A stretch of DNA of 64,000 bases from Mycoplasmataceae bacterium (lineage in GTDB: Bacteria > Bacillota_I > Bacilli_A > Mycoplasmatales > Mycoplasmoidaceae): positions 1-64,000 of the forward strand of contig JAIRTE010000024.1 of assembly GCA_031255095.1 (NCBI GenBank), in the 5' to 3' direction. The position numbers and the translations under genes were made by a program. Each line of letters opens with the position of its first letter. Position 1 is the stretch's first letter. The notes under the pieces were generated by a model that saw nothing but the letters and a program-made list of their open reading frames with translations, made no database searches and was not told the origin of the DNA. Positions 5,711 to 39,921 of this stretch are shown in pieces.

Positions 5711-8659
5711 TTAAGTTTTTTCTTTTTTATAAAGTTGATCGGCAAATTTATTAATCAATTCATCTAATGCACCGCTATTATCACTTAATTGATTAATATC
5801 TTCTCTAACTATATCTTTGTGTATTTTGTCTGATATTCATTCATGGAATTTATCATAATTAACAGTTCTAGCAATATCTTTAGTTTCAATATCATTATTG
5901 TATTTTTCTAAAATTTCAGAAAGTTTATCAATTAAATTTTTTTGTTCTACAGGTTTTACACTACTTCAATATTTTTCCATAATTTCAATGATTATTTGTT
6001 GTAGTGGTTTGAAATTTTTATTTCCTTCTTTCAATTCATTGCTTTTACTTACATCTTTTTTTACACCATCACATTTAACTACACCAACAATGTCAACATG
6101 TTTAACTTCATCAATGTATATTGCATTTTTGATATCCATAACATCAATAATTGGTGTGTTAACACTTTCCCAAGTTAAACTTTTTAAGAAAAATTTTAAA
6201 AATATAAACATTTTATATTGTTCATCATTTTCATTCATTTTTTTAATATTGTTAGCATACATATATTTTTGATAAAAAATAGAACAAGCATATTTTAACT
6301 TCTTTTTTACTTCTATATTTTCCAATGTTAAAAACTTAGTAATATATTTTTTTAATTCAAAAGCTAAAACACATATTTCTGTCACAGTTTTACTATAAAA
6401 ATGATTTTGATTAGCATATTTGATTACAAAGTTATCCAAATCTATTAAATCAAAAAAATTAAAATTAATTACATCCTTATATTTATCAACTAATATTTTT
6501 TCATCAAATTCTGTTTTCAAATATGGAGAAGTATAGTAAAGATTTAAAGCTTTTTTTATTACATCGAAATTATTTTTTCAATCTAAAACTAATAAATCAT
6601 CACTTTGTTTTTTAATAATTATTTGAGCATTAGATGAAACCATTTCATATTTTCGATTTATTCTTTGAAATGTTTGATATAAATTAACACCTTTCATTTT
6701 TTTATGAATAAATAATGAACAAAGTTTTTTTTGATCAAAACCAGTTTGAAACTTATTAGCACAAACAAGAATTTTATAATCTTGTTTATCAAATTCATCT
6801 TCGATTGAAGATTTAATATTATTAATGGAATCTTCTGTATATTCTTTGTTATCAATTTTTTTAGAACCTGAAAATGCAATTAATACTTTGCAAATTTTGT
6901 TTCCATAATCACGTTTTAATTGTTTAATAATTTCATTGTATCTTAAAATAGCATTTTCGATACTAGAACATACTATCATTGCCTTTCCATTTCTATCTAA
7001 TAAATTATATGTTTTATCAAAAAACATTTTTAAATCTATTGTAGTCTGTGGTTCAATAGATTTTTCATCATTATCTATTATTGCTTCAATTTTTCTTTTT
7101 GTTGGAAGTGTATTTAATAATGGATCATCATTAATTTTTTTAATAATTAGTGGCAAAGATTTTTTAACATAAATGTTTTTAGTTATATCCAATATTACTC
7201 CTTCACTGATTGCTTGTTCTGTTGTATATTCATGAAATTCTTTTTTACCACCATCTGGTTTGTCAATACCAAACATTTCTATCGTTTTATCCTTAGGAGA
7301 TGCAGTAAAAGCAAAAAATGTAATATTTTTAGTGTTTAGTGATGCCTGAAAATCTTTTTCACTAAAAGCCAAATCGTTAAATTCTTTTTCTTTTGTTGAT
7401 AAAGAATTATTAATATTTTCTTGATATTGTCCACCTGTCGAAGAATGCGCTTCATCAATAATAATGGCAAAATTTAAGTCACTATGTTTTTTTAAAACAT
7501 TCTCAATGTAAGAAAATTTTTGAATAGTTGAAACAATTACTGGAGTGTTAAATTTTAATGCGTTTGATAACTCATCTGCACTAAAAACATGTTTAAATTT
7601 AATTTTATCTCCATCTTTATTTAATGAGCCTGCGAGTTGATCTAATGCATTGCCTAATTGTCTATCAACTACATTTCTATCTGTAACAATAATTACATAA
7701 TTAAAAACAGGTTTATTATTTTTATTTAAGTAAGATAAATTACGCGCTAATCAACACATTGTTTTAGTTTTACCACTTCCAGCAGAATGAACACATAAAT
7801 AATGATGGTGTTGTGTCTTGTTTAGAATATCTTTTTCTATTTTTTCAACACAATCTCATTGATGAAATCTAGGAAAAATCATTGTGTAACTACCATCTTT
7901 GTTTTTTTCAGCAAAAACATAATCATCTAATATTTTTGCTAAATTACTTTTATCTATAAAGGAATCTCAAAAAAATTCTGCATTTGGCTGATTTCATTTT
8001 TTATTAAAAGGTAAGAAAGAAGTTTGATAACTTTTTAATTTATTAGTCATAGCAATTTCATTGCTATCAATTGCAAAAAATACCATTGTTCTTTCTCTAA
8101 ATATTTTTTCGTTTTCGTTTCTATTTTGTCATTGTTCAATAGCATCGTTAACAGTTTGATTGGAAAAATTACATTTCAATTCAATTAGCATAATTGGAAA
8201 ACCATTAATGAAGATACCTAAATCGGTTGATTTTCTACCATCATATTCTATTTCTTCCATAACAGATCAAATATTTGTTTTGAAATCTTTTAATGTTTCA
8301 GGGTTTAAATTATGATTTGGTTTAGAAAAATAGAATTGTAATTTTCTATTTTTAATAGTAAAATCTTTTCTTAAGAATTCTACAATTCCAACATTTCTTA
8401 TTTCTTTATCTATTTCTTTCATAATTTCATCTTGATAGTCATCAAATGTAGTTTTCAAATATTTTAAAGATTCTTTATTTTGTTTAGAAGAGTTTTCTAA
8501 AAAATTAAATAATGTTGTTTTATCTAATGCATATTTAACATTGTAATCTTTTTTACAATTTGTTTCTATAAAGCCATGTTTATTGATCAAAAAATTATCA
8601 ATAATATGTCTTTGATATTGTCTTTCTGCTGATGTTTTATTTCCTCTATTTGATGGCAT
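5711..8659 (-). CDS. hsdR: type I restriction enzyme, R subunit
   Basis: A 982-residue HsdR: the translocase and nuclease subunit that cleaves DNA together with HsdM and HsdS. The N-terminal nuclease shows DLGIFINGFPIMLIELK (about 146-162), the PD-(D/E)XK core. Superfamily 2 helicase motifs follow: Walker A SAGSGKTKT near residue 293, DEAH (IIIDEAHSS) near 400, TASP, and a Q-rich motif VI (LYQTFQRINRKY). Several TGA-Trp codons are read through. It is last in the operon, two bases after orf215. Length and motif order are normal, so it is probably functional. Confidence 0.93.
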
Positions 8660-8661
8660 AA

Positions 8662-9309
8662 TTATTGATTGTAATTTTTGATTATGTTTAAAATTAAATC
8701 AATAGAATTAATTGTATCCCAATCACTCTTATATGGTAAATAATTTTTTTCACTTATTATTTTTACAACATATATTTTTTTATCTTTCAAAAATATATTA
8801 TCAAAATATACTTTTCCTTTTTTATCTATTACAAAATAGCTAGTATTACTTTTTACACATTCCCATATTTTTTTATCATTATTTTCACTATCATAAATAA
8901 TAATTTTTGCAAAATAATGAATACATGTAATTATTCCATTTAGATTTTGATAATTATTTCTTTTGTTGTAATTAACATAAAGTTTAATGGATAAAGTATA
9001 TGGTGGGTCAGCTTTTATGTTTTCTGGTAATTTGTTATTTTTTCATAAATGTTTAAAATAACTGCTTCTATCTTTTATATGTTTTAATTCATTAACAATT
9101 ACTCATTTAGGAATATTAAAATCTAACAAAGAAAAATGTTCTTTAAGCCTAATATCTGTCAGATCATATAAAAAATTAAATACTCATTTTTGATTTTCAA
9201 AATCCTTAATATCAGGACAATTACCACTCATTTTTGTTCTACAATAATAATCAGCATTCTTTTTAAATTCTTTTAATATAGAAACGATTTGATCCTTACT
9301 AATAACCAT
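8662..9309 (-). CDS. hypothetical protein (orf215) between hsdS and hsdR
   Basis: A 215-residue soluble, aromatic- and lysine-rich protein. Its ATG overlaps the hsdS stop (TAATG) and its stop lies two bases before hsdR, so it is translationally coupled into the R-M operon. The N-terminal third has Cys residues (YYCRTKMSGNCPD), and the middle holds a beta-rich stretch (TLSIKLYVNYN, GIITCIHYFAKIIIYD). I recognise no family. Position suggests an accessory or modulator of the restriction complex, or an added defence protein, by context only. Confidence 0.75.
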
Positions 9310-10511
9310 TAAATTTGTTCACCTCCGTTTTCGATTGTTTCATTAATTAGAGATTGTTTATAAAGTTTAATATTTTCTAATTGATTTATTAAATAATCAT
9401 TTTCTTTTTGTACAATTTCATATTTAATTTTTATATATTTAAATATTTTATTTTGTGTATTTAAAGAATAAAAGGGAATGATAGTATTTCTAATACTTTC
9501 AAGATTTAAATTATTTTGTATGCTACTAGTTGATTTTTGAATTATGAATTCTTCAAGATTTTTTAAAACAAATTTTAAATATTCTTTAGAAATCTTGTCT
9601 TCATTAATAATAAAACCCAATAATGCTTGATTGATGGTAGCTGGGAATAAAGTTTCTGATACCTTGCCTATTGTTGCATAAATTGAATAGATTAATGTTC
9701 CAGTTGGCAGTAATTGAAGATTTTTAGATTCTTTTCCTTGTTTAGTTAAATACTTTTCTGTTATTTTAACATAATCAACAGTTGACATATCACCAATAGT
9801 GATTCATGGTATAGCAGTATCAACATTAGTATAGAATTTATCATTCGATGATTCTGGTGTCCCACCTCCAATTATTTCTTTTAAAATATATTTCATCTTT
9901 ATTTGTCCTCTCTCTCTATGATCTACATAACATTCAGGATTATTACCACTAACTGTTTCATTTATTAAAGATTGTTTATACTCCTTTAATAAATCTTGTT
10001 TTTTCTTTAATAGTTCAGTTATTTTATCTAGTTTTTGTGTTTTAGAGTCTAGGAAATTTGTGATTTTGGTTTGCGTATGAAAATTTATATTTGGTATCAA
10101 TACATTTTTAACAACATTTTGAGATAAAACTCTTTGTGCAGAACCAATTGATAAATCCCATCAATTTATTGTTTTTAGTGCATATAGCAAAAAACTAACA
10201 TCATATTTTTTTTCATCATGCGGTATTAAACAAAATACATGATCAGTTCCAGAAATGGGTTCATTATGAATAAATAAATTACCTATTGATCCTGCACCAC
10301 TCATTGTTAAATTTTTTTTATTCGTTATGTAATTAGATGAATATCCAGCAATTCCATTATCAGTCGATTGATTAGCAATTATTGGAAAAATAGAAATATT
10401 ATTTTTTTCAAAATTCCAATTTTTAATTAAAGAATTGGAACAACCAATAATTTGAATCTTGTATTTTAAATTAATCTTATTTTTTATCATATCCATCTTT
10501 GTGTTTATCAT
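9309..10511 (-). CDS. hsdS: type I restriction enzyme, specificity (S) subunit
   Basis: A 400-residue HsdS with two target-recognition halves. Each half ends in the conserved helical repeat: LLKEYKQSLINETVSG near residue 180 and NIKLYKQSLINETIENG at the C-terminus. The second half opens with VLKEIIGGGTPESS-like sequence (KYILKEIIGGGTPE), the usual TRD start. The first half is short and lacks a clear opening motif, so its N-terminus may be altered. The ATG at 10511 overlaps orf361 by 35 bases; Met codons at 10496 and 10490 are alternatives. A (CT)5 tract lies at the junction of the halves. Confidence 0.9.
9908..9917. repeat. (CT)5 dinucleotide tract inside hsdS
   Basis: Five CT units (GA on the coding strand) encode the RER of DHRERGQIK, at the junction between the first and second recognition domains. 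The gene is currently in frame. A change of unit number would truncate HsdS after its first half. The tract is short, so frequent slippage is uncertain. Confidence 0.5.
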
Positions 10512-11562
10512 TTAAAAATCAGGTAATAATGTAGCTTAGCCATTCACATCTTCTTTTTTTAGTAATTTTACATATATTTTCGCCAATAAAATTTTCTCTT
10601 TTTTCATTAACATAGTTTTGTTGAAGATAATTGTTTTTTTTATTTAAATCGATGCTCTTTATAGTCATTTCCAATGAATCATAAAATTTTTTTATTTGTT
10701 CAAATTTAAGTTTTTTGGTGTAATTTTCTCAATTATTTATGCACATAGAATACAAATATTTAAAAATTTTTTCATCTGTAATATTTTTTGTTGTTTTATA
10801 TGTAATAATATATCTAGTTTTGTACATACCACGGGATTTAGGAAATTCGCTTGTTTCAAAAAATTTCTTAAGCTCAGAAATTTGTGATAATCAATAATTT
10901 AAATATCTAAAAAATTCATATGTACTAATTCCAAATGGATATTCAGTATTTATTGGTGATTTGTTTTTTACACCAAACATAAAGTCGACTACAATATCAT
11001 GTTCATATGTAATTACATCAATAAGTGAATTTTTTCATGAACAATATGCACTACAAATGGGCGAAGAGATTTTGTGATTGGTTTGTAATGGATGTTCTAT
11101 TGTCAAGGATCTTAAAAAAATAAAATATTCAAAATCAGAAAAATCTCTATTTTTTTTAATATTTTTTATATTTTTGTGTTCGAAAATATTACTTTTACCA
11201 TCTATTTCACCAAACAGATCTCTTTTATCTAACAAAATAAAAATTTGTTCAATGCTCTTTATTATTAATGTTTCAAAAACTATGAATGAATAAAAATCTC
11301 AGCATTGATCTTTATGTTCTGTTGAAATTTTAAATGTTAAGAGGAAATTTGTTGTTTCCAAAACCCGTATAAAAGCAGATACTAAAGATTGATAATTAAA
11401 ATAATTATTTCCTTTTTTTGTATCATTAACACCCTTTTTTCTTAAATCAATTTTTAAAATTTTAAATATTTCTTTCCTTTGAGCAGAAACAAAATTCTGC
11501 ATATCTCGTCATTCATTAAGAATTTTTTCATTCTCGAGTTTAAAAAATATTTCTTTATCCAT
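10477..11562 (-). CDS. hypothetical protein (orf361) between hsdM and hsdS
   Basis: A 361-residue soluble protein, mostly alpha-helical and charged. Its ATG overlaps the hsdM stop by eight bases and its stop lies 35 bases inside hsdS, so it belongs to the same mRNA. Near residue 160 it has FEYFIFLRSLTIEHPLQTN, containing Arg-x5-His. This matches the loose R-x(4-6)-H pattern of HEPN ribonucleases in a helical context, but one short motif is weak evidence. No membrane segment or signal peptide is seen. Family not recognised; an accessory toxin or defence role is inferred from position. Confidence 0.75.
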
Positions 11563-13765
11563 ACAATTCATCCTCCAATTTTTTCAGTTCATCATCAACC
11601 TTTTTAATATCCTCTAAAATTTCTTTAGAACTTCTTAATTTTACTTCCTTATAAAATTCTTTATTAAAGTTAAATTCTACACCAATTTTATAAACTTTTT
11701 TATCATAAATTGTATCTGGTAAAAAAGGAAGAACTTCTTTTTTAAAATACTCTTCAATGTCCATTTCATATGGAATATGTTCGGTGTCTTTTAATTCACT
11801 GTCTAATTCTATTTTATTTTTATCAAAAGATTTAGAACCTTTTTCATTTCCTTTGTTATCAATAATAGGACAAGTAATATCTTTTTCAGATAATAAAACT
11901 AAAAAGTTATTTATTAGTTTTTTAGAATTTTCAATATTATTTAGTATATCTTCTAAAAACTTTTTAAACACAAATTTATTAACTCATTTTTTACTAGAAA
12001 TATTTTTGTTTAAAATTTTAATACATTGATCAGAGATTTCTTTAGTTTCCTTTGCTTTTATTAAATTATCTCTTTCCTTTTTTTCTTTATCAGTTAAAAT
12101 ATCTTCATCTTGTTCTAAATATTGAGATAATAAGTCTTTATCATAATCATAAGAATCAATGATTTTTTGAATTCTTTCTTTTTCTATGATAAAGTTTCTT
12201 CTATATGGCTGTTGCAATGGTACTTCTTTGTAATAGAAATGATATTTGCTAAATATCTTGCAAATATCATCGTCTTGTATTTCCTTATTTTTAAATTTAT
12301 CAAATTCATGATAAACATCTAATATTTTTGTTATTTGTTCTTCTGAAATATATTTAGTTTTTTTACCTTGTCCTTTCATTGTTTTAAAGAAATAACCGTC
12401 TTTATCTTCTTTATTTTTCTTAGCAGATAAATCAATTAATTGGACTAGATTTTTTCTATCTTTGGATTTATTTTTATCTAAAATTCAAATATAAATCTGA
12501 ATATTAGTATTGTAAAATAAATCTGTTGGTAATTGAATAATTGCTTCTAAATAATCTTCATCCAATAATCATTTACGAATAGAAGATTCATTGCCAATTT
12601 CTTTAGTTTCGTCTTTAGCTCCTCCGTTAAATAAAGGCGAACCATTAGTAATAATGGTTGCCCTACCTTTGTCACTTAATTTATAAATAGCATCTTCCAT
12701 AAATAACATTTGCATATCACTTCTTGTTGGCACACCATGAATAAACCTTTTGTTCAATTCTTTTATTTCTTTTTTATCTTCAACTCTTACGACACCATCA
12801 TCTGGATAATTAGGATTTGCACCATAATCAGATTTATTATCTTCTTTACCTCAAGGTTCACCAAATGGTGGATTTTCACAAACAAAATCCATATCTCGTT
12901 TGTTATCTTTTTGTAATTTAGCATATGGCGGAACCGTAATATCTTTTTGCAATGTAGAAATCATTCTAATATTAGAAGGATCTTGTCCTTTAATAATCAT
13001 ATCCCCTAAACATATTGCATATGTTGAGGGAACAATTTCTTGACCAAATAATTTAATTCTATCATCTGATAATCCATATTCAGTACTTAATTCATCATGA
13101 ATACATGATAATATACCACCAGTTCCACAAGCAAAATCCCCAGCATATACAATTGGTGTTTCATTTTTATTGTATTTATCTAAAAGTAATTTTACTTTTA
13201 GTTTAATTATTTCTCTGGGTGTAAAATGCTGTCCTGCTTTTTCATTTTCACTATATTCCTTTAATAAAGCTTCAAAAATATGACCCATTTGTACTTGATT
13301 AATTCTTTTAGTTGACAAATCATATTTACTAAAAGCTTTAATAATAGGAACTAAAATGTCATTTTTACCTAATCGATCAATGTGTCCAATAATATTAAAA
13401 TATTTTTCGTCATCATCAGTTTCCCCCATATAAATTGTTCTAATATTTTCACTAAAAGATTCGATATATTTTTTCAAATCCTTTTTAACATCTTTACTTC
13501 TAACACATGCTTCCAAATCTAATTCTGATTTATTGTAAAAATAACAATTAGATTTATGCAACAATTGTTCATTTGAAGCATTAGGATTTTTCTTTAATAA
13601 TTCTAAAACATCTTTTTTCGTTTCAGAATATATGCATTCAAAACGTCTTAATAACAAAAAAGGAAGAATAACATTTTGATATTCTCCTGGTTTATATCCA
13701 CCAGTACGTAATTTATTGGCTAAATTTTTTACAAAATTTACTTCTTGAGCAATGTTCTTATCCAT
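11555..13765 (-). CDS. hsdM: type I restriction enzyme, modification (M) subunit
   Basis: A 736-residue N6-adenine methyltransferase. The HsdM N-terminal domain (ILPFLLLRRFECIYSETKK) is followed by the MTase domain, with a GQHFTPREI helix. SAM motif I FACGTGG is near residue 213 and catalytic motif IV NPPF near 297. The long C-terminal helical tail ends in a coiled coil (KKVDDELKKLEDELYG) that would contact HsdS. It is longer than the usual 500-550 residues because of an extended charged tail. Its ATG overlaps the stop of orf94 by one base. Confidence 0.93.
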
Positions 13766-14049
13766 TATTTTCCCCCATGTGTTTTGTAAATAGTGCTGCT
13801 TATATGTTCTAATATTGGAGCAAATAAATCAATGTTTTTGGCAAAAAATTTATTATGTTTAATTTCTCTCCTTCTAGCAAATTCTAATTGTATTAAAAAA
13901 TTTTTATAAAAATCTTCTTTTGAATTAAATGTTTGTTTCTTCAAATTATTAAAAATTTTAATTAAATAATTAGAAAATGATAATGACAAATTCATATTGT
14001 ATTTGGCATTTAACATTTTAATTAATTCAATACACTGTAATTTATTCAT
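13765..14049 (-). CDS. hypothetical small protein (orf94), first gene of the R-M operon
   Basis: A 94-residue, helical, basic protein with no recognised family. It follows a good AAAGGAG sequence 8-14 bases before its ATG, and its TAA overlaps the hsdM ATG. Being the promoter-proximal small gene of an R-M operon, it could be a controller protein, but no helix-turn-helix is obvious. It could also be a separated N-terminal element of the complex. These roles are inference from position only. Confidence 0.7.
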   Translation of the reverse strand: MNKLQCIELIKMLNAKYNMNLSLSFSNYLIKIFNNLKKQTFNSKEDFYKNFLIQLEFARRREIKHNKFFAKNIDLFAPILEHISSTIYKTHGGK

Positions 14050-14405
14050 TATTTTTTAGCTCCTTTCAACAAGAACAATGAATCAATTACAAAAAAATGT
14101 ATGCAACTAGTGCTATTTATCTGTTTACTGTGTGTGTGTGTGTGTGACTTTCATAAGGTAATTATATTTTAGAATATTATTTCATAGAAATAATGAAGAA
14201 AGTTGTATAAAATTATTTAATCTTGCAATTTTATTTAATTTATTATTAATATTAATAATATCTTTTTTGTATCGAACCAATTTAGCAGCGATTTTCATTA
14301 TGCATGGTATCCACATATTACCCAAATATTGTTTTAATCTTACAAGTGTGTTTTTGCATCATTTACAATATCTTTTATTTTTAGATTTATACATCATTAT
14401 AAATT
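14050..14405. other. promoter region of the type I R-M operon
   Basis: No gene is seen here. The region holds the ribosome-binding sequence of orf94, a possible minus-strand -10 (GATAAAT near 14116) and the (TG)9 tract. Beyond that is AT-rich sequence with short fragmented frames and inverted AT repeats (ATTAATATTAATAAT near 14240) downstream of the coiled-coil gene. Confidence 0.4.
14129..14146. repeat. (TG)9 simple repeat upstream of the type I R-M operon
   Basis: Nine TG units (CA on the transcribed strand) lie about 80-97 bases before the orf94 start. On the minus strand the order is ATGAAAG, the CA tract, then GATAAAT, so the tract could form the spacer between promoter elements. Changes in unit number would alter that spacing and could switch expression, as known for dinucleotide tracts in other host-adapted bacteria. 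That effect here is inferred. Confidence 0.7.
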
Positions 14406-16915: not shown

Positions 16916-18142
16916 TTATAAATAACTTATTGGCAAAACATACATATTATCTTTAATTTTCATAATATTTTCTACACAACATATTACTGTCATAGGTAAT
17001 ATTTTCTTATTTTTAATAGAATTAACAATATTAAAATTACTAAAGAATTTATCATGATAGGTAGCTGATTTTTTAATCTCTATAGGATAGATTTCATTAT
17101 TATCTGCTTCAATAATGAAATCAATTTCCTTATTTGAATATGCATCTTCAATGTAATATATTTTATATTTTAAACCAGCATTGGTGTAAGATTTATATAT
17201 TTCTGAAATTGCATAACATTCAAAAATATGTCCAGCTTGTTCAGATTTTAGTAAATCTATTGGATCGATGTAATTGAGTATTGAACAAATTAATCCAGTG
17301 TCATAAAAATACAATTTTGGTGATTTAATTGCTTTTTTTAATATATTTTGAGAATAAGGTCTTAATAAAAAAATTATTCCTGATGCTTCTAAAGCATCAA
17401 TTCATTTCTTTATTGTTTTATCTGATACATTAATTTTAGAAGAAATATTTTGAATGTTAATTTTTTGTCCAACATAACTTGTTAGACATTTTAAGAAATT
17501 TCAAAATGATGTAATATTAGAGACATTTGTTATGTCCTCTCTAATATCTTTTAAAACAGTAGATGTAATATATGTAAAATAAAAGGCTGAGATATTAGTT
17601 TTAGTACCATTGTTAATATCTGGCATGCTGCCTTTAATAATTCTATTAAATATTGCTATTTGATCACATTCCTTTTTTCGATTTAACATCGCATCAAAAT
17701 CAGGTTTAAATGGTCAATTTTCTCGTTCGTCAATTTCAGATTGAGAAAGAGGTAGCATTGGAATTAAACACATTCGTGTTGAAAGGGTTTCAACAGAATT
17801 TAAAATTGGCAATATGTCACTACCACTTAGAAAAAACATTTTTGGTTGTTTATTTTTATCAATGCACAATTTTATTGTTTCTAAAATTTCTGGTGCTTTT
17901 TGAAATTCATCAATAAAAAGTGGCGGATTGTAGATGTTTAAAAGTGTTTTAGGATCATGCAAAGCTAAATTTTTAATATTTTTATCATCAAAGGTTATTG
18001 ATTTAGCATAACCTGTTTTTACAAAAACATCTTCTAATAAAGTAGATTTTCCGATTTGTCTAGGACCATAAACTACAATAGCTGAATATTCATTAGCACA
18101 GTCAGAAAGTGTCTTTGCAATATGTCTTTTATAAAATTTCAT
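16916..18142 (-). CDS. AAA ATPase with DUF4143 domain (copy 2)
   Basis: A 408-residue member of the family. Walker A is VYGPRQIGKST (about residues 24-34), Walker B PPLFIDEFQKAP, and the sensor FFLSGSDI. The C-terminal DUF4143 part keeps an intact PD-(D/E)XK-type core (KEIDFIIEADNNEIYPIEIK), unlike the copy at 2731. It belongs to a different subfamily from the copies at 2731, 45011 and 50614: GPRQIGKST instead of GLRRCGK. It probably couples ATP hydrolysis to a DNA or partner-binding domain; the biological role is unknown. Confidence 0.9.
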
Positions 18143-18611: not shown

Positions 18612-21584
18612 CTATAGTATCTCTTCTTCATTTCTTAATTTTTCATAAATGTCATATTGCAATATATTTCTGCTTTTTTCACTAAGTTTTAAAATTTGAC
18701 AAGCAACTTGTTTAGCAAGTTTTGTTTTACAAATTAAAAAAATATGATCTTTAATAATTTTATCATAATCCTTTTTTAAATTAAGTGAAGAACGTGAAGT
18801 TTCGTATAATTTAATACTTGCATATAAACCATATAAAGCAGTTTTACTATTAATGTCTAAAATTCGTTTATTGTTTTTTAAAGCATCAACCCAATCGATG
18901 TTAATTTTTTTATAATGTTCTTTAATAACTTTAATTGGTGTTAACACAGTTTCTTTATCAGGATTATGCATGCTGGCAAAACGTTCAATTCAATATTCAT
19001 ATCTTTCAATTGGATCAGTAAATTTATCTGCTTCAAATACATTAGATATTCATTTTTGCATACTTGCATAAAAAATATCTTCATTAATAAAATTTTTTAT
19101 AGAATTAATAAATTCATTTTTTTCAATTTGCATGAATTCTTTTCAATCTCCATGCTCATAAAGTTTGGTAAATTTTTCAATCTCAAGTTCTTTAATATTT
19201 GGATATTTTTCTTTTATTTCTTTTGCTTTGCCTATAAGCATATATGGTATTCGAGTAAAAACCTGATTAATAATTTGCTTAATTTTTTCTTTTGCTTTTT
19301 TTAATTCATTAATTGTCTTATCAGGATTTGTGGTTGTTATTTCATTTTCTTTTTCAGGCGCATTGGTTTCACATATTGCCACATCTAAACCATGATCAGT
19401 AATCTTGTTGTTGTTTTTTGTGTTGCTACTTTTGCCAGTTTTGGAAACAATTTTTTCACAAAATTCTATAAGTTTCTTTGGATCGTCTTTATAATATTTT
19501 TTGAATTTATTAAAATCAATTAATGAAGTTGATTTAAATCCTTCACTAACAATTTCATTTGCTGTAGCATTATGTATAATTGTTTTTAAATCTTGTGAGC
19601 TTATTTCAGTGAAACCATTATCTGTAAAGCTCATTACATTGTAATAATTTAAAACTGTTTTTATATTTTCATTAGTTTCTCTGGTATTTTCCGACTCTGT
19701 TTTATTATTTTTCATTGAATTAGATTTTGCTACTTTATAAATTAATGCAAACATCCTATCAGGATCAAAATCAAAAACCAAAGCACAAGTTTTTTGTTGT
19801 TTTCAATCTTTCGGTGATGGATTTTTAGCACGATAGATAGTTTGAAAATATTTCATTGGGCTGTTACTATTAGATAACATTAAAACACAGCCCAAACCTG
19901 GTAATGTTACACCTGTTGTTAATCTATCTACAGAAAGAATAATTGAAGATTTTTCTTCATAGTTTGTATGTTCTTTTATTTCAGTAAAACTGTTTTCATT
20001 TTTTTTGCAATTATCTCCAGCAACATTAAAAATTCTATATCCATGTGTTTTAAAATAACTGTGTTCTTTTAATAATTTTTCTAAAGCATTGCAGATTTTT
20101 ACACTTGGTAATAATCAAAAACTATGTTGAGTATAAAATCTATTTTTTATGTTAAAAGGCATCTTGGTTAAAAATTCATCATTTTCATCATTTGATGATA
20201 TTCTGTCTAATCATTCTATTATTTCTCTTTCTTTTTTAAATTTCAATGTTTCATCATCAATAGCGAAAAATATTCTGAAATCAAAATAATTATTTTCATA
20301 ACCAGTAACATTAATTCCATTATTTAATTTTTCTTGAGTAATTGAAATACCATTTAGCGAAATATCTGGTAAATTTTCATAAGGATTGGAGTCAGTTCCA
20401 TTCTCTTTTACTCAATCACATTTACATTCTGCTTCTTTTTCTTGGTCAAATATATAAATATTGTCTCCAAATTTTTTATCATAATTATCATCATATTTTA
20501 AGTTATAGGCAGTACCACTTAAAAACAATGAAAATTTTCGTTTAAGATATTTGTACATTATTTCTGCTGAATTTGTTGAATTTCCTTCATGTGCTTCATC
20601 TATTACAATTAAATCTCAATTAGTATCAAATATAGCTTTATTTGATTCTTTAAATTTTGGTTCTCCAAATTCATTTGCATCTATCATTTTTTCACCATTC
20701 TCATTTTCGATATATTTAATTCCTCTCATATCTTGTATTGAAGCAAAATAAATTAAATTATTACAAGAATCGATTTTATTTTGTTTGCCATTTTCATCTA
20801 GACTCCCCAACTCTTTTTTATCTAAAAATTCATAATTTTTATTTAAAGTATTTTGATCTGCACTATTTTTAAAGACTTTTTTATAATCATCTCTTCAACT
20901 ATCTTTAACAACAGGTTTATGTGTTAATATCAGTACTTTAGAAATATCATTTGTGTTAATGAATTCATATGTTGTTACACATTTACCAAATCTCATAATA
21001 CAGTCTAACAAAAAGTTATTGTTATTTTTTTTAGTATTAGGAACATCATTCTTGAATTTTTTATATGCTGCAGAAATTTTTTCTACAGCTTCTTTTTGTG
21101 GCTTTCGTAATTCTATTTTTGAAGTTCATTCATTGGTAAAATTAATTTCACCTTTTTTATATTGTTCTAAAAAATTTATTGCAATATCTGCTAAACATTT
21201 AAACCACTCTCTACCAGTAGATTTAATCGTATCACTGTCTTTATTGTTGGCTGATACACCATTTGGTAATTCTTTTTTAATACCATTATTTTCCAAAACT
21301 CTATGAAAGTCATGGTCAGAAAATATTTGTTCTTTATCTCTATTTTTCCTTATTGCCAGTGTGGCATATTCTAATTTTGCATTTAATCCTGCAGTTTTGT
21401 TGATATCTCTAATTCTATTTTTTGCCTTAGCTTCAATACATTCTTGTAATATTTTGTCATCAAGATTATTAGCATCTAATTTAGTTTCTCCAATTTTACA
21501 ATATCCATCAAATTCAGATATGGAAACAGTATAGATGTAAATTATTTTCCATGATTTTGATTTAATAATATTTTTATTCTCCAT
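18612..21584 (-). CDS. GIY-YIG / DEAH-helicase restriction protein, 990 aa
   Basis: The N-terminus (IIYIYTVSISEFDGYCKIGET, residues about 12-35) resembles the T5orf172-type GIY-YIG nuclease domain. A superfamily 2 helicase follows: a modified Walker A with CIMRFGKCVTT near residue 196, DEAH (LIVIDEAHEG) near 326, motif III FLSGTAY, and a motif VI region YFQTIYRAKNPSPKD. The C-terminal 350 residues are helical and of unknown function. The ATG lies inside the end of the methyltransferase gene (11-base overlap), so the pair is one R-M operon. The family resembles restriction components paired with Eco57I-type methylases. Confidence 0.8.
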
Positions 21585-23431
21585 TGTCGTGCAATACTTC
21601 TATTGCATCATAGTTAGTATCATTAAATTTGCCTACATTTGTTTCTATTTCATTAATTTCATCATTTGAAAAACCGAAATATTCATATATTTTTTTATCA
21701 TCTCATTCTTTTTTAAAATCAATGAGTGGTATTAAATTAAAATTTTTTTTAGATACATTCATTCCACTCCAATATACGGAAAATAAATAACGTCATAATT
21801 TTGTCTTAATAAAACTTAAACAATTATTATTCTCCTCTAATGTTTCAAATTTTCCAATTGATAAAAAAGTCTCACTACATATTTCAAATGGTTTAGCAAC
21901 TATTATTTTGGGCATCGAAGAATATGGTGGTTTAAAAGTGAATGCTTTTGAGAAGAATAATTTGTAATTATCTTTATTTTCCATAATGTCTGTTTTAATA
22001 TGTCATTTAGAAATGTATTTTTCTATTCTCTTTGCTCCACCTTTGTTTCCAAAAACTCCAAAAATCTTATAGTCTATTTCATTTTTAAAATCATGAACAT
22101 TGTACTTATTAGTTTTATCGTTGAAGATGTCTGCACAAAAACCGTATGGTTTTCGTGCAGACACGATTGATGAAAAAATTGGTAAATTTTTAGCACCAAT
22201 TTTTTCTAGTATTTTCATAGCATTTGCATTTCTAATGAAAATTTCATACTTTTCATTATTTAATTCTCGGTCGCATTCAAAAATATTTGTTTTATTTTTC
22301 ACTCATGTATATTTACATTTATTATTTCAATTTTTTTGCCATGTCACTATATTGATACCACCAGAAATATTTGCTGAAGGAAATATTTCTTTAGCATTTT
22401 CTCAAATCGTTAAATTACAAATATCTTTTTGTTCTAAAATAAACTTTCTAAATTCATCAAGACCTCTTCCACCAGAAGTTCACTTTGCAGGGAAAATTAA
22501 TGATATTTTATTAGAGAGAGAGAGAGAGATTGAAAAATTTATCATACAATGGAATTGCTTGATCAGCATTTGGACCTTCACCAACTATTTTCTGATATGG
22601 TGGGTTAGAAATGCAGTAATCAAACTTAAAACCCTTATCAAAATGAAATTTTTCTATTATTTCTTTTGCAACTTTATCATATTTATTTTGATTTTTAAAT
22701 GCTTCCATAGCTTCGAAATTATTATTAAGTGTATTATAACCATTGATTGTAAATACTCAATGATTATAGGGTATTATGTCATATATAGGTTGTTCTATAT
22801 ATTCATCAGAAAACAAAGTTTCTTGCTTTACTGGATTTAAAATGCTGCTGAATTTTTTTACAAGTCTAATAATATTGTCATTTTTCCTAAAATACAATAC
22901 AAAATTAAAGTCAGTGTTTTTACTAATAAAATCTCCATGTAATGTATTTAAAAGCAAAATAATATTGACTGCATTTGCATAATGTTCAGGAATAGATTTA
23001 GTTTTTGTATATTTTTTATACAAAGATAAAATAAATTTGTAACATCGTTCTTTGATTCGTTCTATATTTTGATAGTCTATGTCGTTTAAGTACATTGAAC
23101 CTAAAGCTAGTAATGTTCTAATTTCATATTCTTTAATGAAATTTGCATTTTTTAAAATTAAATTTTCTTTTTTCATTTCTGAAATTACTTTTTTAAATTT
23201 GTAATTTATTATTTCAACTGCAAAATTGCCATGACCACTTGCTGGTTCTAAAATTGTTGCATTACTTTTAACTTTATCAATGTTTAAAAATTTAAGCATT
23301 TTTTCGACAACAACTTTGGGGGTGAAAATTTCTCCTAAACTTGCACCTCTACCAATATCAGGAACAAATTCTAATCCATCAGAAAATTTTTTATATATCT
23401 CTTCTTTGCAAAATGGTTTGTAAGCTTTCAT
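21574..23431 (-). CDS. Eco57I-like N6-adenine DNA methyltransferase, frame broken at a GA tract
   Basis: The proximal frame from ATG 23431 encodes SAM motif I (ILEPASGHGNFAVEI, about residues 55-69) and catalytic motif IV SNPPYQ near 272. It then runs into a (GA)8 tract and stops at 22511. The family sequence resumes in the next frame (KISLIFPAKWTSGGRG) and continues to TAA 21574-21576 with a recognition-type domain (GVFGNKGGAKRIEKYI). The two parts together make about 618 residues. Gain of one GA unit or loss of two would restore a single frame. As sequenced the gene is off, or the assembly has the wrong tract length. Confidence 0.8.
22513..22529. repeat. (AG)8 tract within the methyltransferase gene
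   Basis: Eight AG units plus one A lie exactly where the methyltransferase frame breaks. On the coding strand they encode a Leu-Ser repeat. Upstream coding is in the phase of 22511 and downstream coding in the phase of 22501. A tract of 9 or 6 units would join them. This is a typical contingency-locus arrangement. Confidence 0.85.
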
Positions 23432-39318: not shown

Positions 39319-39921
39319 ATGTCAATAAAAAAATCAAAAACCATTAAAACTGTATTAAATACAACAGTTTTAGAATCTGAACAACCTGAAAGAGTTGGTA
39401 TTAAAGAGAAATTATTAACTGAAGAAAAAACTTATACATCAACAATTATTACAAAAACAAATAAAGGTAGTGGAAAATCTAATCCTCCTACTAATCCTCC
39501 AAAACCACCTTCTGAACCAAATTCATGAGTGGAAAAACCTACTAATAAACCTAATAATGGAGTAAAATCAGATCAAAAGAAAAATGACAAATATGTTTCA
39601 AAAGCAGAATTTAATGAATTTAGAAATGAGTTTAATGACAAATATGTTTCAAAAGCAGAATTTAATGAATTTAGAAGGGATTTTAACAATAAATATGTTT
39701 CAAAAACCGAATTTAATGAATTTAGAAATGAATTTAACAATAAATATGTTTCAAAAGCTGAATTTAATGAATTTAAGAACGAATTTAATGAGTTTATTAA
39801 AGAACAAAAAATAATCAACCAGAAAAATGAACAAGATATTTCAAATATGAAAACAGATATAAGTGATATGAAAAAGAATATTGATAAAATCCTTGATATT
39901 TTAACTAATAAGAATAAATAA
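39319..39921 (+). CDS. DUF16-like coiled-coil protein with 17-residue repeats, 200 aa
   Basis: Three parts are seen. A Thr/Lys-rich N-terminal 60 residues come first, then a Pro-rich linker (NPPTNPPKPPSEPNS). After a TGA-Trp there are four tandem 17-residue repeats, each with YVSKAEFNEFR, and a final coiled coil (DISNMKTDISDMKKNIDKIL). The repeat matches the YVT-x-x-EF-x-EF motif of Mycoplasma pneumoniae DUF16 proteins. No signal peptide is present. It is likely an oligomer; the function of DUF16 proteins is unknown. Confidence 0.7.
39586..39789 (+). repeat. four tandem 51-bp repeats
   Basis: Units begin at 39586, 39637, 39688 and 39739. Each encodes DKYVSKAEFNEFR plus four variable residues, with only a few base differences between units. 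Being a multiple of three, gain or loss of units keeps the frame, so length variants of the protein are expected between strains. Confidence 0.85.

What the first reader, a model, noticed from the sequence alone, without database searches (positions are those of the whole stretch)
22513..22529. Methyltransferase switched off by a (GA)8 tract
The catalytic half (motif I, NPPY) and the recognition half lie in different phases and meet exactly at the (AG)8 tract. Nine or six units would join them. This is strong internal evidence for a phase-variable methyltransferase (phasevarion candidate).
Basis: partly seen in the sequence, partly recalled or inferred. Interest (0 to 1): 0.7.

Follow-up and report, generated by a model that had tools for sequence, protein, structure and literature searches.

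The report
Repeat-switched DNA methyltransferase in a mycoplasma-like bacterium
A short (AG)8 repeat sits inside a DNA-methylating enzyme gene of a mycoplasma-like bacterium and currently breaks it in two, and relatives carry similar repeats of other lengths, types and positions in the same gene, so this is very probably an on/off switch for a restriction-modification system, a kind of switch already well known in mycoplasmas.

Summary
At 22513-22529 lies (AG)8A, or (TC)8T on the coding minus strand (code TGA=Trp). A 306-aa catalytic half (motif I, NPPY) stops right after the tract. The remaining ~313 aa, with the recognition domain, are open in another phase. Only tract lengths such as 6, 9 or 12 give one ~619-aa protein. 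The tract is far beyond chance, and both halves look coding and constrained.

The next gene (18612-21584) is a ResIII helicase with a probable GIY-YIG (T5orf172) N-terminus, so this is a two-gene relative of PADLOC's helicase-containing 'Type IIG' family, with an Eco57I-like methyltransferase. It is not Type III.

Relatives give the best evidence. Nine of 22 Mollicutes genomes encoding the family carry repeats in this gene: (TC)8, (CT)7, (GA)9, (GA)13, (AG)7, (AC)11, G11, G11, G9, at six alignment positions; three in frame, six out. Sibling hsdM and hsdS genes also carry repeats.

So: an SSR-driven phase-variable R-M switch, now OFF. Length variation within one population is not shown, and 'phasevarion' is untested. 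It is a new member of a known kind, with a notable convergent pattern.

The parts
22513..22529 (-). (TC)8T dinucleotide tract on the coding strand (AG8A on +), the frame switch
   Evidence: Direct sequence and TRF; expected about 1e-7 to 1e-6 per 64 kb
22511..23431 (-). Catalytic half of the methyltransferase (306 aa, code 4), truncated by TAA TAA just after the tract
   Evidence: Pfam PF02384 N6_Mtase 30.1 bits, above the curated cut-off
23222..23248 (-). Motif I EPASGHGNF (SAM binding)
   Evidence: invariant in the four closest homologues
22595..22606 (-). Motif IV NPPY
   Evidence: same alignment column in the homologues
21574..22512 (-). Recognition half (about 313 aa after the tract), open in another phase than the catalytic half
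   Evidence: PADLOC PDLC03375 E=2e-23 and PDLC03626 positions 1043-1324 E=2e-17
18612..21584 (-). Probable restriction partner: 990 aa, N-terminal T5orf172-like domain plus ResIII/helicase; start overlaps the end of the methyltransferase frame
   Evidence: Pfam PF04851 E=4e-16; PDLC03626 positions 70-914; T5orf172 seen in homologues

Best explanation
This is a translational on/off switch in the modification gene of a two-gene restriction-modification system. Slipped-strand mispairing adds or removes TC units (inferred). About one third of tract lengths give a full ~619-aa Eco57I-like N6-adenine methyltransferase with its own recognition domain (shown by frame arithmetic). All other lengths, including the assembled 8 units, give a ~306-aa fragment lacking the recognition domain, so modification is off. 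The overlapping helicase-nuclease gene stays intact. It probably depends on the methyltransferase's recognition domain for targeting, so losing that domain would disarm restriction at the same time and make switching safe (inferred from the fused single-chain relatives and from Type III precedent).
For: Frames meet exactly in the tract. Unbroken homologues span the junction: G027 (608 aa), G011 (581 aa) and G025 (626 aa). Same site, different length: window (TC)8 and G009 (CT)7. Same site, ON against OFF: G025 (GA)9 intact and G032 (GA)13 broken. Order-wide, 9 of 22 genomes with family matches carry a repeat in this gene, at six alignment positions (columns 304-310, 357, 382, 447, 563, 640) and with several repeat units. 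G009's tract is its genome's only AG/AC run of 7 or more units, and G145's is its only G run of 9 or more. Window versus G009 codon-position identity is 68/77/53% in the recognition half and 65/72/55% in the catalytic half, i.e. protein-level constraint. Coding signal is normal in both halves. hsdM and hsdS genes of the genus also carry repeats. Precedents: M. mycoides MmyCI AG12 off / AG10 on (PMC3498834); in-vivo dinucleotide-repeat length variation in Ca. M. girerdii R-M genes (PMC5476646).
Against: No reads or second isolate of this species, so tract variation within the population is not observed, and the MAG gives one consensus length. Methyltransferase and nuclease activities are predicted only. 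The R N-terminal fold search was not significant and the AlphaFold model of the methyltransferase was poor (pLDDT 52). The dependence of R on M is inferred.
Confidence: 0.88

Rival explanations
1. The two frames are separate genes making two subunits that assemble into an active methyltransferase (a naturally split enzyme).
For: In the window the second frame has ATG codons just before the tract, one with an AAGG-like sequence 5 nt upstream. A related system (G011, G027) has a separate 243-aa motif I gene beside a full methyltransferase gene.
Against: In G009 the second frame has no ATG before or near the tract, only a TTG at codon 2 and the next at codon 126. In G032 it has only a TTG at codon 32 and an ATG at codon 83, the latter after NPPY. 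The gene is one frame in G025, G027 and G011, and breaks examined in other genomes fall at other sites, again at a repeat.
Confidence: 0.05
2. A dead gene: the frameshift is a fixed loss-of-function mutation in a decaying pseudogene.
For: It is out of frame in the assembled genome; R-M genes are often lost.
Against: The only lesion is the reversible repeat; about 313 codons downstream remain open with normal codon usage; constraint is seen between two OFF species; the R gene is intact.
Confidence: 0.05
3. Assembly or sequencing error in the repeat; the real gene is in frame and not switching.
For: Draft MAG of 52 contigs; repeats are error-prone.
Against: The same kind of repeat at the same site is out of frame in an independent assembly (G009), and other genomes break at repeats in this gene. 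A 17-nt tract fits inside short reads (general knowledge).
Confidence: 0.05
4. A true phasevarion: the methylation switch mainly regulates host genes rather than restriction. (This is an added function on top of the best explanation, so its confidence is not exclusive of it.)
For: Phase-variable methyltransferases in other bacteria alter expression, e.g. the Type IIG Cj0031 in Campylobacter (PMC4889913).
Against: Intact linked R gene; no expression or methylome data.
Confidence: 0.2

Closest known systems
MmyCI Type III R-M of Mycoplasma mycoides subsp. capri (PMC3498834)
   Same: AG repeat inside the methyltransferase gene; OFF by a stop immediately after the repeat; overlapping downstream res gene; ON/OFF clones demonstrated
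   Different: MmyCI Mod is a Type III enzyme; here motif I precedes NPPY, with Pfam N6_Mtase and Eco57I-like relatives
PADLOC PDLC03626 'REase_MTase_IIG' (helicase plus methyltransferase in one chain)
   Same: The window R protein matches profile positions 70-914 and the recognition half matches 1043-1324; an intact Mollicutes homologue (L158) matches at 1470 bits
   Different: Two separate genes here; the catalytic N-half is not matched by this profile
Cj0031 Type IIG enzyme of Campylobacter jejuni (PMC4889913)
   Same: Phase-variable Type II-like methyltransferase; switching alters methylation and gene expression
   Different: Single-chain Type IIG enzyme; Campylobacter phase variation uses G/C homopolymer tracts
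Dinucleotide-repeat contingency genes of Ca. Mycoplasma girerdii (PMC5476646)
   Same: Dinucleotide repeats in R-M genes of an uncultured mycoplasma; Type III methyltransferases OFF in the majority of the population; length variants seen in reads
   Different: The affected R-M genes named there are Type III methyltransferases and Type I HsdS

Membership tests
SSR-driven phase-variable gene (contingency locus) | Hypermutable simple repeat inside the reading frame, longer than chance | tested here: met
SSR-driven phase-variable gene (contingency locus) | Unit gain or loss toggles a full-length and a truncated product | tested here: met
SSR-driven phase-variable gene (contingency locus) | Different tract lengths and frame states among relatives | tested here: met
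   (between species only)
SSR-driven phase-variable gene (contingency locus) | Length variants within one population | not testable with these tools
   No reads; one genome per species; no viral-contig match
Phasevarion | Methylation state changes expression of several genes | not testable with these tools
   Needs methylome and transcriptome
Type III R-M (Mod/Res) | Beta-class Mod with DPPY before FxGxG | tested here: not met
   Motif I (EPASGHGNF) precedes NPPY; N6_Mtase hit
Type IIG R-M | Restriction and modification in one polypeptide | tested here: not met
   Separate genes 21574-23431 and 18612-21584, although fused relatives exist
Eco57I-like / helicase-linked methyltransferase family | Eco57I or N6_Mtase domain, with the recognition half and helicase matching PDLC03626 | tested here: met
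   the Eco57I Pfam hit is in homologues, not in the window halves
GIY-YIG (T5orf172) nuclease in R | T5orf172 match and conserved catalytic residues | tested here: inconclusive
   Pfam match in G025 R (21.5 bits against cut-off 20) and G027 R (33.7 bits); I-Y, K-x-G and E-W conserved in the window; no window Pfam match; Foldseek not significant

The most novel reading that the evidence does not exclude
One helicase-linked Eco57I-type methyltransferase family is a favoured target for switching across Mollicutes. It has independently acquired slippable repeats (AG/TC, AC and poly-G) at six or more places in the gene, and so may form a class of phase-variable epigenetic or defence switch outside Types I and III.
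Probability: 0.45. Interest if true: 0.55.

Novelty: new member of a known kind. Interest (0 to 1): 0.4.

Why it matters
It adds an uncultured Mollicutes genus to the organisms that appear to switch restriction-modification by repeat slippage, and does so with a methyltransferase class different from the Type I and Type III genes usually reported. The repeated appearance of different repeats at different points of one gene family suggests strong selection for switchability of this system. That can be tested with existing metagenomic reads.

Tried and rejected
Viral-contig scan for the tract flanks: no match. Foldseek of the R N-terminus against PDB: nothing significant. PDB sequence search with the joined protein: only two weak Type I M matches at E about 0.6-0.7. 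The (CA)10 in G027 near its motif I gene lies upstream, and no frame joins it to that gene, so it was not counted. The G005 split gene first met is a Type I hsdS, so it is not in the family count. Type III classification rejected on motif order.

Full report
Setting. The window lies on contig C10 (98,244 bp) of a 997-kb, 52-contig genome in a genus of Mollicutes. Its nearest homologues found by name are uncultured Mycoplasmataceae/Mycoplasmatales MAGs. GC is 25.8% and genes read with TGA=Trp, so code 4 is needed: under table 11 the catalytic frame appears cut at a TGA.

Observation. The tract 22513-22529 is (AG)8A, or (TC)8T on the coding strand. The catalytic half (23431 to 22511) carries motif I EPASGHGNF and NPPY and ends in TAA TAA straight after the tract. 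The other half runs to 21574 in a different phase. Simulated tract lengths of 3, 6, 9 and 12 units give 615-621 aa; all others give 302-314 aa. The chance expectation for such a run is about 1e-7 to 1e-5 per 64 kb depending on the unit. Both halves have a coding signal close to that of ordinary genes of this window, and only in the expected frame.

What the gene is. The catalytic half matches Pfam N6_Mtase. The recognition half matches PADLOC methyltransferase profiles, including the C-terminal part (1043-1324) of the 1359-position PDLC03626 'REase_MTase_IIG'. The downstream 990-aa protein matches positions 70-914 of the same profile. Intact homologues match Pfam Eco57I, and single-chain helicase-methyltransferase homologues exist in other Mollicutes. 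The 990-aa protein is a ResIII helicase. Its N-terminus aligns with homologues that have a Pfam T5orf172 (GIY-YIG) domain, but the fold search was not significant, so the nuclease identity is likely rather than shown. The methyltransferase frame and the helicase gene overlap (stop at 21574, start at 21584). Motif order excludes Type III.

Comparative test. In the genus, G009 has the same arrangement broken at (CT)7 at the same alignment column. G025 has an unbroken 626-aa gene with (GA)9 inside. G032 has the same site with (GA)13, broken. Across 298 genomes of the order, 22 have matches to the family. Adding G237 (AG)7 OFF, G292 (AC)11 ON, G062 G11 ON, G145 G11 OFF and G155 G9 OFF makes nine genomes with a repeat inside this gene, at six distinct alignment positions. 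A further family match in G155 also contains a G9 run. These repeats are rare genome-wide: one AG/AC run of at least 7 units in G009, two in G025, two in G292, three in G237, one G run of at least 9 in G145 and four in G062. Their recurrence in one ~1.9-kb gene is therefore far above chance; this is an argument from counts, not a formal test. hsdM and hsdS genes in the genus also carry G8-G9 and 7-10-unit dinucleotide tracts, and a Type I hsdS in G005 is broken at (CA)8.

Rivals. Two independent subunits are unlikely: the second frame lacks a usable ATG near the tract in G009 and lacks one before NPPY in G032, and the gene is one frame in G025, G027 and G011. A dead gene is unlikely: both halves show codon-position constraint between two species that are both OFF. 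Assembly error is unlikely given independent assemblies, but only reads can settle the true length distribution.

Mechanism. Slippage changes the frame (inferred). OFF removes the recognition domain. R probably relies on that domain, so restriction and modification would go off together (inferred from the fused relatives and from Type III logic). The published precedents in M. mycoides (AG12 off, AG10 on, PMC3498834), M. agalactiae poly-GA mod genes (PMC9465063) and in-vivo repeat variation in Ca. M. girerdii (PMC5476646) make this an expected behaviour. Phase-variable Type IIG enzymes are known from Campylobacter (PMC4889913).

Verdict. A real, probably functional, phase-variable R-M switch, assembled in the OFF state. 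It is a new member of a known kind. The convergent distribution of repeats across the family is the most interesting part. No claim of a phasevarion can be made.

Noticed in passing
window 14129-14146: (TG)9 tract upstream of the Type I R-M operon, before ORF 13765-14049; no long frame is joined by it, so perhaps a promoter-spacing or leader switch.
   Followed up: partly
window 5711-13765: Type I R-M locus (hsdR, hsdS, hsdM) with two interspersed ORFs of unknown family (8662-9309, 10477-11598).
   Followed up: partly
window 16916-18142: AAA_14/DUF4143 gene next to the R gene, a strong match (E=5e-86) to PADLOC candidate defence family PDC-S01.
   Followed up: no
L025 2553-9771 (G000:C51): (TC)9 near the 3' end of a PAPS-reductase (BrxP/DndC-like) gene, in a cluster with an HNH gene, two HATPase_c_3 genes and a Z1/ResIII helicase: possible defence operon.
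   Followed up: partly
L080 3601-6237 and L083 1742-3855: Tandem paralogues (sugar-transferase-like by eye; probable membrane proteins) with CA/TG tracts right at their N-termini, probable surface contingency genes.
   Followed up: partly
L096, L098, L092, L094 (hsdM) and L109, L125, L126, L127, L137 (hsdS): Poly-G and dinucleotide tracts inside Type I hsdM and hsdS genes of many species of this genus, some in frame, some broken.
   Followed up: partly
G020 and G023: Two congeners with unusually many long AG/AC dinucleotide runs (over 130 overlapping pattern matches each).
   Followed up: no
window 39583-39791: 51-bp tandem repeat, 4.1 copies, inside ORF 39319-39921.
   Followed up: no
L021/L022: Related three-gene systems with a separate motif I-only gene (243 aa), a full Eco57I methyltransferase and a T5orf172/helicase-type protein; the role of the extra motif I gene is unclear.
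   Followed up: partly
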